A stretch of DNA of 64,000 nucleotides from Dialister micraerophilus DSM 19965 (GTDB lineage: Bacteria > Bacillota > Negativicutes > Veillonellales > Dialisteraceae). Both the position numbers and the translations under genes were made by a program. Below the pieces are notes generated by a model, which searched no databases, was not told where the DNA came from, and saw nothing but the letters and a program-made list of their open reading frames with translations. Shown one piece after another: positions 11,615 through 37,660 of this stretch; position 1 is the stretch's first letter; each line of letters opens with the position of its first letter. The DNA lies in assembly GCF_000194985.1 (NCBI RefSeq), contig NZ_GL878519.1, positions 512,327 to 576,326 on the forward strand, written 5' to 3'.

Positions 11615-12224
11615 TGCTTTCTTCCGTTTTTTCCTGAGCGTCCGCTTCAACGTTTTCTTCTTTATTTTCTGTCGTTTCTTCAATTTCTTCAGTTTCTTCC
11701 GCTTTTGACGAAAGTTCTTCCGCATATAAATCATCTTCATGCGGTGCGTTTTCCGGTTCTTCGATTATTTCCGGTGCCGGTGTCGATTTGCATGCTTCGA
11801 CAAGTGAGAATGCTGATTTGAAGTTTGAAAGTATTTTTTCTATGTAAAGGTTCAAATCGCCTTCCGTCTTGATCAGATTTGCATTTATTTCTCGGCGTGC
11901 GCTTTCCGCATCCGCTACTATTTTACTTGCTTTTGTTTTTGCTTCACGTATGCAAAGTTCCGCTTCTTTTTCCGCCGCTCTTTTTACGTTTTCGGCAGTT
12001 TCTTGTGCCATTACCAAAGTGGAGGACATCGTTGCTTCCATTTTTTCATAATTACGTAATTTTGTTCTTATGGTGTCCATTTCTTCTTCCGCTTCACGAT
12101 GCTCGCGATATATTTTTTCATAGTCACTTGCCAATTCTTCCAAAAATGCGTTTACTTCTTCTTGTGAGTAACCTCTAAGTTGACGTGAAAATGTTTTATT
12201 ATGTATATCCATCGGTGTAATCAT
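11607..12224 (-). CDS. divIVA: DivIVA-domain cell-division/polarity protein
   Basis: A 205-aa coiled-coil protein that binds curved membrane at septum and poles and recruits division or wall-growth partners. The N-terminal DivIVA lipid-binding domain is clear (MDIHNKTFSRQLRGYSQEEV with FLEELASDYEKI after it). Long coiled-coil heptads cover about residues 30-140. The C-terminal ~55 residues are an acidic tail (EE-rich) of low complexity. AGGAGG precedes the start. The position after ylmH is the classical one, although ileS, the usual next gene, is instead at the far end of the window. Confidence 0.94.
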   Translation of the reverse strand: MITPMDIHNKTFSRQLRGYSQEEVNAFLEELASDYEKIYREHREAEEEMDTIRTKLRNYEKMEATMSSTLVMAQETAENVKRAAEKEAELCIREAKTKASKIVADAESARREINANLIKTEGDLNLYIEKILSNFKSAFSLVEACKSTPAPEIIEEPENAPHEDDLYAEELSSKAEETEEIEETTENKEENVEADAQEKTEESNE

Positions 12225-12241
12225 GCTGTTCCTCCTAAATC

Positions 12242-13033
12242 TTATTTGAAACGATTTATTAAAAGTCCGGTTCTGCCTTTTCGGCTTTTTCCGGTTATTT
12301 CTTCAATTTCAATGCGTCCTTTTCCGCGTATGCTTATTATATCTTTGACTTTTACTGTCTGAGATACGCTTTTTGCGGATTGCCAGTTTACTTGTACTCT
12401 GTCTCCGTCTATCATTTGTACCATTTTGGTCCTTGACAGTCCGAATCCTGCGGCACCCACCGCATCAAGTCGCATTGATGCTACCATCGCACGTATTTCT
12501 TTCGCTTTTTGCTCCGGTACCTTCAATTCTTCAAGCGGAATTTCTTCTACTTGTACCGGTACCATTGCAACTTTTGTGAAATTGCTTTTTATGTACTCCG
12601 ACATTTTACCGTCTACAAGTATTTGCGCTTGTGCGCCTTGCATGAGTATATCTCCAAGCACTTCTCTTTCAATTCCCAGTCCCATAAGACTTCCCAATAC
12701 ATCTCTGTGTCCTATAAGTCTGAAACGGTCATCCCATGTTACGGAAAGCAAACTTATTTCATAATTTACTTTGCCTCCGTAATCATTTGACTGAAATGCC
12801 ACTTTTACACGTTCCGCTTCATGATATCCGCCGTTGTATGAGCTTGTGACGGTTTTCATGTGTGCGGCAATTGTTTGCCCTATCTGTATGGAAAGGGGCG
12901 ACATGAATGAACTTACTGTAAACGGTCGTCCCCGTTCTACGGATTCGGCAAGATCGACAAGCCTTATTGCCATTTCTTTCGCTTCATCTCCCGATGAGGA
13001 GAAAAAGTTTATTATTTTTTCTCTTTCTTTCAT
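12242..13033 (-). CDS. ylmH: S4-domain RNA-binding protein YlmH
   Basis: A 263-aa protein with an N-terminal YlmH-specific region and a C-terminal S4 domain (about residues 185-245; SMRLDAVGAAGFGLSRTKM and VKVKDIISIRGKGR). In other Firmicutes YlmH binds the 50S subunit and acts in ribosome rescue, in addition to its division-cluster linkage; I infer the same here. Its ATG overlaps the proC stop by 4 nt, so the two are translationally coupled. Confidence 0.92.
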   Translation of the reverse strand: MKEREKIINFFSSSGDEAKEMAIRLVDLAESVERGRPFTVSSFMSPLSIQIGQTIAAHMKTVTSSYNGGYHEAERVKVAFQSNDYGGKVNYEISLLSVTWDDRFRLIGHRDVLGSLMGLGIEREVLGDILMQGAQAQILVDGKMSEYIKSNFTKVAMVPVQVEEIPLEELKVPEQKAKEIRAMVASMRLDAVGAAGFGLSRTKMVQMIDGDRVQVNWQSAKSVSQTVKVKDIISIRGKGRIEIEEITGKSRKGRTGLLINRFK

Positions 13034-34657: not shown

Positions 34658-37351
34658 TCATTTTTTCATTTTTTCATATGTTTCATAATCCCGATAAACT
34701 CTCTTGTCTATAGGATCGTAGTGCAAATCGGTTTCTTTCATAAATTCTATTATTTTGTACATGTTTACATGTATGTTGTAGTAGTCGGCCAAAAGACGAT
34801 GAAGTTCTTCAAGGGAAATATATTTTCTGACTGAAAGCAGTACGGAAAGCATGTCCGACATTCTTATCTTTTCACGTCCTCTGTAAAACAGACGTGTTTT
34901 ACCCATTCTTCTGCACGAGAAATGTTCGTAATCTTCAGCAAGTATGGATACATAGAACCAATATCCGAATCCCGCATCGTCAATTTTGTGCGTAAATCCG
35001 TCTTTACGAAGTGATGTTACGGTGAAAAATTCTCCCGGTTTTACTTTTTCCGCTACCGCATTGCAATAGTCTTTCAATGTGTCTTTTGTTATTCCTTTTT
35101 CTTCCAATTTCCTTATATTTATGTATTTATGCGGTTCAAATTCAATTATTTCATATTTTGCACAAATGTCATAAAGTGTCGATATAAATGTCACGCAATT
35201 TCTTATGTGTCTGTTCAAATTGCCGATGTCTATTATATCGTCTTTCGTAAGCATGTGTTTGAAATAACTCAATGCCGAATCGTATGTATTTTTTATAATG
35301 TAACCCGTATATACTTTAAATCCCAGCGTTTTTAATGTATACGGATTTATCGCAGATATACTTTTATACGGAAATTGAGATTTGTATATTTGTTTTACTT
35401 CGAGTATCGCATAGCAATCTTGAGTAAGAAGTTCTTTCATCTTTTCAAATTCTTCATGAGGTAAATTGTCTGCCGACAATGTATAAATACCGTCATAAAA
35501 ATAATCGTCAAAGTTCTTCATGTAACTTCCTATTACCGTTTCAGCTTTTACACCGTATTGCTTTTCATACATTTTTGCAAAATCTTTTACCGAAATCGGT
35601 GCATATTGCAAAAGCATTTCCAATACTTGATTGTCGGTATTGGGATTTCCGAATTCCATTGTGGGCATTCTCCCGAATTTTATATATGTATTTTCTTTCG
35701 GGATTATCTTTTTGAGTAAATTATGAAATTCGTATTCATCATGTATATCGTATCTTCCCATGAGTTTAGGATAGTCATTTATAAATTTCAAAGTCGACAG
35801 TTCCACGTCTTCGTATTGCTCCAAATCCAATGTGTCGAATAAATCTTCATAATCTTGTCCGGCTATATCGTAATATCTGAAACTCTTTCCCTGATTCCAT
35901 AAAACGTAATTGCATTCACTCAATTGATTTATATATGCTCTGTCCTCTATCCAAAGCGCCGTTTCGTTATCTATACCGTTTTCCTTTAAAAAATTCATGT
36001 ATATTTCACGAAATTTGTCAAACCTCGTTTGTTCTTTGCAATACTTTTTCACTACGTACTTGACAAGTTCCGGACGATTTTTTCTTATTGCGGTCGCACC
36101 TATTCTTACATAATCTTTGTAAATTACGGGTTCGAGCATTTTTTTCATTTGCTGAGGTATGTTTTCGTCAAAAAGAATTTCTTCGTCCAGTTCTTTTTTG
36201 TCGCCGTTTTTTACTCCGCATATGGTTTTCAAGTACATATACGTTTCTACCGGTTCGGAAAACGCTTCACAAAATTCGTCTTCATTTATATGGTAATTTT
36301 CGTAAAGGTAAATATATTTGTTTTCTTTTACATCCGGAAAACCTGAAATTACCTTGCTTACTATTTGTCTTACACGTTCTCGTGTAAGATCGAATTCTTT
36401 TGCAACATCCTCAAGCGTTTTTCCGGAGAAACGGCTACGCACTATTTCTTTTGTCCTCTGTTTCGGTATTTTATCCAAAATTTCCGAAAAGGAAGGTAAG
36501 TAAAGACATATTTTCCCTTTTTCAAAGCAAATTATTTTCCCTTTTTCCATATTTTTCAAAATATCTTCCATAATTTCCGTTTTTTGCAGACATGCCGGAA
36601 TTATTTCAAATATTTCGCTTTTACTTGCATAATGATTTCTTTTCAGGAAAAATATTATTTTGCCGTTCAAAAACATTTTTATCGGCTCATATTCGATAAG
36701 CGATTTCAAAAATGTTTTTTCATCGTATCTGTTTGTGATGAATATGTGCAGAAGTTGCAATACTGCTACATTTTTATTTCGATTTACATACGGTACAAGT
36801 TCTTCAATTATACGGTTTAAAATTTTGTAATTTTTGAGAAGGAATTTCGCTTCTTCCGAGGTGGCTTTATCGTATAAATCTCTCGACTCCAATGTTTTGT
36901 AAAAGAAGTCCCACATGCTTTTATATTTCGCTATTCCCAGTGAATATATTTCAGATATGGATTTGTCCCACAGTTGGGTATAAAGAAATATATTTTTTTC
37001 GCAGAGTTTTTCTTTCATCTCGTCATCGAAGTCGCCTGCGCTTATAAGTAAATTTTCTTTCCTTATATTTTCATCTTTTTCAGATCTGCACTTCGTTTTT
37101 TCTTTTATGTCCAACGTACCTTTGTCTATAAGTATAAATTTGGAATTATCGCCCGTTTCAAGTTCTTTGAGAACTCTTTCCACTTCTTCCACACTGAGGC
37201 GTCCCATTCCGTAAATCATACTTAAATCATTGTTTTTGGCATATTCAATTAAACTTCCTATTGTATGAACTTCCGCTCGTCTTAAACAGTTGTTTGTTCT
37301 TGTCGAAAGCTCCAATACATCTATAAAATCATCTTTTGTTATGAATTTCAT
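34658..37351 (-). CDS. Large protein with RNA polymerase alpha-CTD-like and sigma-70 region-4-like modules
   Basis: An 897-aa protein without a known overall assignment. Residues ~12-62 match the alpha C-terminal domain: E. coli DNA contacts R265, N268, C269, G296 and S299 correspond to R18, N21, C22, G50 and S53. Residues ~298-336 match sigma-70 region 4.2, with TLEDVAKEFDLTRERVRQI carrying the -35-reading R/E/R triplet. No sigma region 2 core-binding motif is visible. The remaining ~550 residues are helical and include a repeated winged-HTH-like pattern near the end (SLEELHRLLADYYN). The start at 37351 gives a 7-nt spacing from GGAG. It is monocistronic with a strong promoter. Role unknown; transcription control or defence are possibilities. 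Confidence 0.85.
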   Translation of the reverse strand: MKFITKDDFIDVLELSTRTNNCLRRAEVHTIGSLIEYAKNNDLSMIYGMGRLSVEEVERVLKELETGDNSKFILIDKGTLDIKEKTKCRSEKDENIRKENLLISAGDFDDEMKEKLCEKNIFLYTQLWDKSISEIYSLGIAKYKSMWDFFYKTLESRDLYDKATSEEAKFLLKNYKILNRIIEELVPYVNRNKNVAVLQLLHIFITNRYDEKTFLKSLIEYEPIKMFLNGKIIFFLKRNHYASKSEIFEIIPACLQKTEIMEDILKNMEKGKIICFEKGKICLYLPSFSEILDKIPKQRTKEIVRSRFSGKTLEDVAKEFDLTRERVRQIVSKVISGFPDVKENKYIYLYENYHINEDEFCEAFSEPVETYMYLKTICGVKNGDKKELDEEILFDENIPQQMKKMLEPVIYKDYVRIGATAIRKNRPELVKYVVKKYCKEQTRFDKFREIYMNFLKENGIDNETALWIEDRAYINQLSECNYVLWNQGKSFRYYDIAGQDYEDLFDTLDLEQYEDVELSTLKFINDYPKLMGRYDIHDEYEFHNLLKKIIPKENTYIKFGRMPTMEFGNPNTDNQVLEMLLQYAPISVKDFAKMYEKQYGVKAETVIGSYMKNFDDYFYDGIYTLSADNLPHEEFEKMKELLTQDCYAILEVKQIYKSQFPYKSISAINPYTLKTLGFKVYTGYIIKNTYDSALSYFKHMLTKDDIIDIGNLNRHIRNCVTFISTLYDICAKYEIIEFEPHKYINIRKLEEKGITKDTLKDYCNAVAEKVKPGEFFTVTSLRKDGFTHKIDDAGFGYWFYVSILAEDYEHFSCRRMGKTRLFYRGREKIRMSDMLSVLLSVRKYISLEELHRLLADYYNIHVNMYKIIEFMKETDLHYDPIDKRVYRDYETYEKMKK

Positions 37352-37419
37352 TTCCATTCTCCAAATAATTTTATTTCCGTTCTGCGAATAATTACTTTCC
37401 CGTATATTTATTCATCTTT

Positions 37420-37448
37420 ATAATAGAACTTTAACTAAATTACGTCAA
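37420..37448 (-). promoter_or_regulatory. Predicted promoter of the alpha-CTD/sigma-4 gene
   Basis: Minus strand TTGACG (37443-37448), exact 17-nt spacer, TATTAT (37420-37425), about 60 nt before the start codon. Confidence 0.65.
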
Positions 37449-37475
37449 GAATGTAAATATTTCATTTTTCAGGTA

Positions 37476-37625
37476 AAGAAAAAACGACCCCGAGGGTCGT
37501 TTTTTTCACTAGGAGTGTAAAAAATAAAGGGAGTTAGAAAGGAGTGAGATTTATGATTGGGATTTCATAATCTCTTAACGGATTTTGTCCGTCTTTCTCT
37601 AAAAGCGTGGTTTTCCATCGCTTCC
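37476..37625 (-). ncRNA. Candidate CU-rich small RNA
   Basis: A self-contained minus-strand unit of about 150 nt. It has a promoter (TTTTCA, 17 nt, TATAAT at 37632-37637), then a hairpin AAGCG/CGCTT, then a three-way junction closed by TTAG-GAAAG/CTTTCTAA containing ACGGA/TCCGT and GAGATT/AATCTC hairpins. A single-stranded tract with ACTCC, ACTCCC and ACACTCC follows, then a terminator. No ORF is present. The CU-rich segments complement Shine-Dalgarno sequences, as in trans-acting sRNAs. No known family is recognised, and a role as a leader for the downstream gene is not excluded. Confidence 0.55.
37479..37505 (-). terminator. Strong terminator of the candidate sRNA
   Basis: A 12-bp perfect stem AAAAAACGACCC with its complement, loop CGA, T-run on the minus strand. 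Confidence 0.85.
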
Positions 37626-37631
37626 GAATTC

Positions 37632-37660
37632 ATTATAACAAATTTAAGTGCATTTGAAAA
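37632..37660 (-). promoter_or_regulatory. Predicted promoter of the candidate sRNA
   Basis: Minus strand TTTTCA (37655-37660), 17-nt spacer, perfect TATAAT (37632-37637). Confidence 0.5.

What the first reader, a model, noticed from the sequence alone, without database searches (positions are those of the whole stretch)
34658..37351. Protein combining both promoter-reading modules of RNA polymerase: alpha-CTD and sigma region 4
The 897-aa protein carries an alpha-CTD-like helix-hairpin-helix with the UP-element contacts kept (R18, N21, C22, G50, S53 for E. coli R265, N268, C269, G296, S299) and a near-canonical sigma-70 region 4.2 helix (TRERVRQI). It has no visible core-binding sigma region 2, and ~550 residues of unknown helical sequence. 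One chain could thus recognise an UP element and a -35 box together. It could act as a promoter-mimic repressor, an alternative initiation factor, or a sensor of RNA polymerase takeover.
Basis: partly seen in the sequence, partly recalled or inferred. Interest (0 to 1): 0.8.

Follow-up and report, generated by a model that had tools for sequence, protein, structure and literature searches.

The report
Promoter-reading protein of bacterial defence cassettes
This gene encodes a large DNA-binding protein that carries copies of the two parts RNA polymerase uses to recognise promoters, and its relatives in many bacteria sit in anti-phage DNA-modification and restriction cassettes, so it probably helps bacterial immunity read promoter DNA, although nobody has yet tested it.

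Summary
The 897-aa protein has an RNA polymerase alpha-CTD domain (Pfam E=2.5e-12), a degenerate second alpha-CTD-like repeat and a primary-sigma-type region 4 (Pfam E=6e-7). AlphaFold supports all three folds. The "unknown helical" remainder is mostly a tandem winged-helix array. Of 62 homologs of at least 750 aa, 38 have exactly two alpha-CTD repeats ahead of one sigma-4.

The homologs are sparse and mobile. In 31 of about 68 loci the gene precedes a ParB-like gene, usually followed by an SNF2 helicase that often carries a PLD nuclease domain. Five more loci are phosphorothioation operons (Ssp, type-4 BREX). About 20 are solo copies in genomes with no such cassette found. The window copy is solo, but its genome carries the ParB-like/PLD-helicase/C5-methyltransferase cassette about 330 kb away.

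Best reading: an uncharacterised family of promoter-type DNA-recognition proteins linked to modification-based phage defence. Whether it targets nucleases, occludes promoters or regulates its cassette is untested. An alternative initiation factor is unlikely. Parts are precedented (PglW, MzaA, BrxL, DndH); I found no description of this combination.

The parts
34658..37351 (-). Whole gene: 897-aa alpha-CTD / sigma-4 / winged-helix protein (called SIG here); alternative start at 37357
   Evidence: ORF and translation; full-length homologs
37163..37330 (-). Alpha-CTD repeat 1, residues 8-63, with R18, N21, G50, S53 for E. coli R265, N268, G296, S299
   Evidence: Pfam PF03118 2.5e-12; VIA Z up to 10.0 to RpoA CTD; conservation
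36887..37042 (-). Degenerate alpha-CTD-like repeat 2, about residues 104-155; the R265 and N268 positions are lost in this protein but kept in many homologs
   Evidence: Repeat HMM 5e-7; VIA rows at 91-155 (Z 9.0) and 84-154 (Z 8.8)
36497..36691 (-). Winged helix, residues 221-285
   Evidence: AlphaFold model and VIA matches Z 8-10 to assorted winged helices
36329..36496 (-). Sigma-70 region 4-like domain, residues 286-341
   Evidence: Pfam PF04545 6e-7; VIA Z 9.1, 36% identity to S. aureus SigA domain 4
36362..36385 (-). TRERVRQI recognition helix, residues 323-330
   Evidence: Sequence; near-invariant in 46 homologs
35627..36316 (-). Middle region, residues 346-575, mixed alpha/beta; holds the family signature DIHDEYEFHN (535-544)
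   Evidence: A2 invariant columns; model
34661..35626 (-). C-terminal module, residues 576-897: tandem winged helices; also present in a MutH-type endonuclease on a Priestia plasmid
   Evidence: AlphaFold pLDDT 94, pTM 0.80; Foldseek/VIA winged-helix matches
37420..37448 (-). Sigma-70-type promoter-like site TTGACG-17-TATTAT ahead of the gene
   Evidence: Consensus scan only, not evidence of function

Best explanation
The protein belongs to an uncharacterised, horizontally mobile family that puts the promoter-reading modules of RNA polymerase holoenzyme (usually two alpha-CTDs, then one primary-type sigma region 4, in the order UP element then -35) on one chain with an array of winged helices. 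It most likely works as the DNA-recognition component of modification-based anti-phage cassettes. Inferred mechanism: it occupies promoter-type DNA (A/T-rich UP sequence plus a -35 hexamer) through its alpha-CTD and sigma-4 domains, and the winged-helix array holds the DNA or partner proteins. This either directs helicase/nuclease partners to promoter regions of incoming DNA or excludes RNA polymerase from them. In this genome the gene is separated from the ParB-like/PLD-helicase/C5-methyltransferase cassette, which lies about 330 kb away. Shown here: domains, conserved contact residues, operon linkage, mobility. Inferred: binding to promoters, the defence role, and the choice between targeting and occlusion.
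For: Domains and folds. Contact residues conserved among homologs mostly 20-36% identical to the window protein. Two alpha-CTD repeats in 38 of 62 homologs of at least 750 aa, three in 3. Gene order SIG - ParB-like - SNF2 helicase (often with an N-terminal PLD nuclease of PbeA type) in about 30 loci, with genes overlapping or a few bases apart. Linked C5-methyltransferase and MutH/Sau3AI-type endonuclease genes. Ssp/BrxP phosphorothioation operons in 5 loci. Co-occurrence in a phylum sample: SIG in 4 and the ParB-like gene in 6 of 398 genomes, 3 shared; by my arithmetic p is about 4e-4 even without the window's genome. The window's genome carries the cassette elsewhere. Mobility: plasmids, several phyla, absent at the syntenic place in a congener, lower G+C.
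Against: About 20 homologs are solo, and the genomes searched have neither the ParB-like gene nor the helicase, so the partner link is not obligatory. Several operonic members, including two of the three plasmid-borne Enterococcus homologs checked, have no recognisable alpha-CTD, so UP-element reading is not a family constant. In the window protein the second repeat has lost its contact residues. No DNA-binding or phage data exist. The relative placing of the domains is unreliable (pTM 0.47).
Confidence: 0.45

Rival explanations
1. Generic multi-HTH DNA-binding platform: the alpha-CTD and sigma-4 folds are used as ordinary DNA-binding parts with no promoter recognition, as HTH arrays are in PglW, BrxA or DUF4007.
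For: Winged-helix array; NCBIfam/PADLOC cross-hit of the alpha-CTD to PglW; alpha-CTD and wHTH modules reported in PglW and sigma-HTH in BrxL (PMC12839542); alpha-CTD lost in some members.
Against: The specific base-contact residues of region 4.2 (R324, E325, R326, Q329) are near-invariant while the rest of the protein diverges to 20-35% identity, more than generic backbone binding would require.
Confidence: 0.25
2. Transcriptional regulator of the cassette: it sits first in the operon, binds the cassette's own promoter over UP/-35 and represses or times expression.
For: First gene in the operons; promoter-like architecture suits occlusion; solo copies could control other loci.
Against: Nearly 900 aa with many DNA-binding domains is large for an autorepressor; solo copies in genomes without the cassette need other targets; very short gene spacing also suits a stoichiometric complex.
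Confidence: 0.2
3. Alternative initiation factor or RNA polymerase-associated factor: it binds core polymerase through the sigma-4/beta-flap surface and redirects transcription.
For: Sigma-4 and alpha-CTD are also main protein-contact modules of polymerase (established knowledge); both are detected here.
Against: No sigma region 2 detected, so no -10 melting or main core contact; about half of the loci are defence cassettes.
Confidence: 0.06

Closest known systems
BREX type 2 PglW
   Same: Alpha-CTD-like domain followed by several winged helices in a large defence protein (PMC12839542); weak cross-hit to the alpha-CTD region
   Different: PglW has a kinase and other domains; this protein has no enzymatic domain detected and adds sigma region 4. 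The NCBIfam PglW score is far below cut-off (13.6 against 990 bits)
MzaA of the MZA anti-phage system
   Same: Sigma-70 region 4 in a defence-system protein
   Different: Only about 50 residues match; 28.9 bits against a cut-off of 800
Sigma-like HTH domains of BrxL and of some DndH
   Same: Sigma-type HTH in modification-based defence (PMC12839542, PMC10853773)
   Different: Different proteins; no alpha-CTD is mentioned for them in the passages read
RNA polymerase alpha-CTD and sigma region 4 on UP/-35 DNA (PDB 3n97)
   Same: Same folds and contact residues; two alpha-CTDs plus one sigma-4 in most homologs
   Different: One chain, no polymerase core parts; window repeat 2 degenerate
PbeA-type PLD-helicase, Ssp/type-4 BREX phosphorothioation operons
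   Same: Homologs of this gene lie directly in front of or within such operons
   Different: SIG itself is not a described component in the passages read

Membership tests
RNA polymerase alpha-CTD domain (PF03118) | Profile match above cut-off, fold, minor-groove contact residues | tested here: met
   46.8 bits against cut-off 23.8; fold; R18, N21, G50, S53
RpoA (alpha subunit) | N-terminal dimerisation domain and match to the rpoA equivalog | tested here: not met
   Only the CTD matches, 39.5 bits against cut-off 227.8; a separate 337-aa frame matching the CTD, taken as rpoA, lies elsewhere in the genome
Sigma-70 factors | Region 4 with the -35-reading helix | tested here: met
   PF04545 29.3 bits against cut-off 24.1; VIA Z 9.1
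Sigma-70 factors | Region 2 (core binding, -10 melting) | tested here: not met
   No region 2 hit at E up to 10
MzaA (MZA system) | NCBIfam MzaA equivalog score | tested here: not met
   28.9 bits against 800
PglW (BREX type 2) | NCBIfam PglW score, kinase domain | tested here: not met
   13.6 bits against 990; no kinase hit
Ssp / type-4 BREX phosphorothioation systems | Operon with BrxP/SspD, SspB, SspC or BrxC | tested here: not met
   True for 5 homolog loci, not for the window gene, which is solo
Sau3AI/MutH restriction enzymes | MutH-type nuclease domain | tested here: not met
   No MutH hit in P0001; only the C-terminal module is shared with the Priestia enzyme
This SIG family as a defence component | Protects against phage | not testable with these tools
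   No experimental data at hand

The most novel reading that the evidence does not exclude
A single protein that reproduces the whole promoter-reading set of RNA polymerase holoenzyme (two alpha-CTDs and one sigma region 4, in promoter order) and uses it as an immune receptor, so that bacteria recognise invading DNA by its promoters and direct helicase/nuclease or phosphorothioate machinery to them.
Probability: 0.18. Interest if true: 0.88.

Novelty: new variant of a known kind. Interest (0 to 1): 0.62.

Why it matters
Phage DNA must present promoters that the host polymerase can read. An immune component built from the polymerase's own promoter-reading modules could exploit a feature that phages cannot easily lose. 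Even if the role is only regulatory, the family links several chemically different modification systems (C5 methylation, phosphorothioation) through one unstudied protein and gives a clear test of what sigma-like and alpha-CTD-like domains in PglW, BrxL and DndH are for.

Tried and rejected
Single-sequence scans of genome and viral contigs gave no relatives; an alignment query was needed. Annotated phages: no match. I first took the c7-c12 gene cluster for DISARM; PADLOC shows Ssp/BrxP phosphorothioation genes instead. I first thought Sau3AI-type endonucleases in general share the C-terminal module; only the Priestia protein hits that profile, the others were joined by their MutH domain. The 'ParB-like' label rests on a DGNRR motif and sub-threshold Pfam hits (0.005-0.006), and a profile search of solved structures did not support it. 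The C-terminal module has no sequence relative in the PDB. Rfam: nothing at the locus. Text searches found no description of the combination; the HARE-HTH paper is not held. The search for cassette genes in solo genomes contained no positive genome; the ParB-like profile does find the cassette in the phylum search, but the helicase profile (five rows, E limit 1e-40) was not run on a positive genome, and it missed the shorter PLD-helicase of G011 that a broader local profile finds. A masked ORF after the methyltransferase in the window's genome was not pursued. The careful tree was not finished; the quick tree is used.

Full report
Observation. The gene lies on the minus strand at 34658-37351 (897 aa; alternative in-frame start at 37357). 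Pfam finds an RNA polymerase alpha C-terminal domain at residues 8-63 (2.5e-12) and a sigma-70 region 4 at 298-334 (6.1e-7), both above curated cut-offs, and no sigma region 2. phmmer against the PDB gives alpha-CTDs first, at 1.7e-5.

Structure. An AlphaFold model from 46 window and locus proteins has mean pLDDT 85 but pTM 0.47, so the domains are good and their mutual arrangement is not. VIA-align matches 2-65 to alpha-CTDs (Z 8-10), 91-155 and 84-154 to alpha-CTDs again (Z 9.0 and 8.8), 221-285 to winged helices (Z 8-10) and 286-341 to sigma domain 4 (best Z 9.1, 1.9 A over 55 residues). The list includes 3n97, the alpha-CTD/sigma-4 complex on UP/-35 DNA (Z 8.9). The C-terminal 322 residues folded alone give pLDDT 94 and pTM 0.80. 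They match winged-helix arrays (UFL1, ESCRT-II, SelB, Rpc5) with modest scores (VIA Z up to 7.0), consistent with tandem winged helices. No enzymatic domain was found.

Conservation. Across 46 full-length homologs the alpha-CTD contacts are largely kept: R18 in 36/42, N21 in 33/42, G50 in 35/41, S/T53 in 33/41; C22 is often A. In the sigma helix Q329 is invariant and R324, E325, R326 and R328 are kept in 42-44 of 46. A repeat profile finds exactly two alpha-CTD-like repeats in 38 of 62 homologs of at least 750 aa, three in 3, one in 7 and none in 14. Repeat 2 also keeps R in 30/38 and N in 21/38 rows, but in the window protein it has lost both. Polymerase holoenzyme carries two alpha-CTDs and one sigma-4; that parallel is my inference, not a test.

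Distribution. The family is sparse: 4 of 398 Bacillota-phylum sample genomes, 6 of 380 genomes of the class with full-length matches, plasmids of Enterococcus and Exiguobacterium, and scattered MAGs assigned to Spirochaetota, Mycoplasmatota, Melainabacteria and Verrucomicrobiota. In the nearest syntenic congener (G001) the iron-transport operon that ends at window 37759 is conserved but the gene is absent. Its G+C is 33.3% against 38.6% for the window. This fits an acquired gene.

Context. Of about 68 distinct loci, 31 have the gene directly before a ParB-like gene; where the contig continues, an SNF2-type helicase usually follows, with genes overlapping or a few bases apart. The helicase comes in a ~620-aa form and a ~855-aa form with an N-terminal PLD domain close to PbeA. 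C5-methyltransferase, Vsr and MutH/Sau3AI-type endonuclease genes are often adjacent, and the ParB-like/helicase pair also occurs with a methyltransferase but no SIG (L026, L146, L147). Five loci show a second context: four with BrxP-like, SspB, SspC and SspA/DndA genes, and one IMG/VR contig with BrxP and BrxC, that is, phosphorothioation and type-4 BREX systems. Loci L025 and L079 have tandem paralogs next to a methyltransferase and Vsr. A Priestia plasmid encodes a MutH-type endonuclease that carries the same C-terminal module and sits beside the ParB-like/helicase pair.

Window genome. The window copy stands alone, but the same genome has a ParB-like gene, a PLD-helicase and a C5-methyltransferase together at C1:877463-882625 (L102:12464-17626), about 330 kb away. 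In the phylum sample 3 of 4 SIG genomes have the ParB-like gene, against 6 of 398 overall. Excluding the window's genome, 2 of 3 against 5 of 397 gives p of about 4e-4 by my arithmetic. In contrast, 22 searched genomes whose SIG lies outside the cassette had no ParB-like gene, and the 20 of them searched with the helicase profile had no match. That helicase profile is strict: it also missed the PLD-helicase next to SIG in G011, which a broader local profile finds. The solo proteins compared are intact, with dN below dS (0.20 against 0.43 for L039/L052). A quick tree mixes solo and operonic members (13-14 label changes, fewer than in shuffles) and puts the window protein in a supported set of 11 rows of which 6 are operonic; its nearest rows by path are operonic.

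Mechanism. What is shown: fold, conserved contact residues, operon linkage, mobility. What is inferred: recognition of UP/-35 DNA, a role in defence, and whether this means targeting, occlusion or regulation. An initiation factor is unlikely without region 2. Solo copies argue against an obligatory complex; close gene spacing and the shared C-terminal module argue for a partner link.

Known and new. Alpha-CTD plus winged helices are described in PglW, and sigma-type HTH domains in BrxL and some DndH (PMC12839542, PMC10853773). MzaA is annotated as a sigma factor of a defence system. RefSeq names homologs only 'sigma factor-like helix-turn-helix DNA-binding protein' or 'hypothetical protein'. 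I found no description of the combined architecture or of the SIG-ParB-helicase cassette in the searchable literature, which is not all literature. Hence: new variant of a known kind.

Noticed in passing
window 37475-37625, minus strand: Intergenic stretch ahead of the gene with an extended -10 promoter-like site (37632-37660), a strong predicted RNA fold (z -5.2), C-rich unpaired segments (ACUCCUUUCUAACUCCC) and a terminator-like GACCCUCGGGGUC hairpin; looks like an unannotated small RNA. No Rfam hit; a 36-base piece matches in congener G001.
   Followed up: partly
L102:2187-4142 and 11991-12392 (window's genome, about 867-877 kb): The 3' part of a 23S rRNA methyltransferase (RumA/RlmCD-like) gene is duplicated just before the ParB-like/helicase/methyltransferase cassette, suggesting insertion by a mobile element at that gene; a solo homolog in L057 also lies right after such a gene.
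   Followed up: no
L025:8681-17628 and L079:4764-13629: Exiguobacterium plasmid and contig with three tandem paralogs of the family; the longest (about 1220 aa) has three similar N-terminal repeats.
   Followed up: no
L067, L077 (same place as L148): Peptoniphilaceae-type genomes keep a solo homolog at a conserved chromosomal place beside a sodium-symporter-like gene at 44% identity, suggesting long-term vertical retention.
   Followed up: partly
L054:10096-13506 (same place as L149): In a Veillonellaceae relative the gene is followed by a 425-aa protein with a cysteine-rich radical-SAM-like motif and no Pfam hit, then a PLD-helicase and a RecF/SMC-like ATPase.
   Followed up: no
L085:7971-18694: IMG/VR contig with a 1449-aa homolog followed by BrxP and BrxC: a type-4 BREX start on a contig classed as viral.
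   Followed up: no
G593, G609, G656, G665: Other open frames of roughly 900-1400 aa in the class match only the N-terminal part of the profile, a possible separate family of alpha-CTD-repeat proteins.
   Followed up: no
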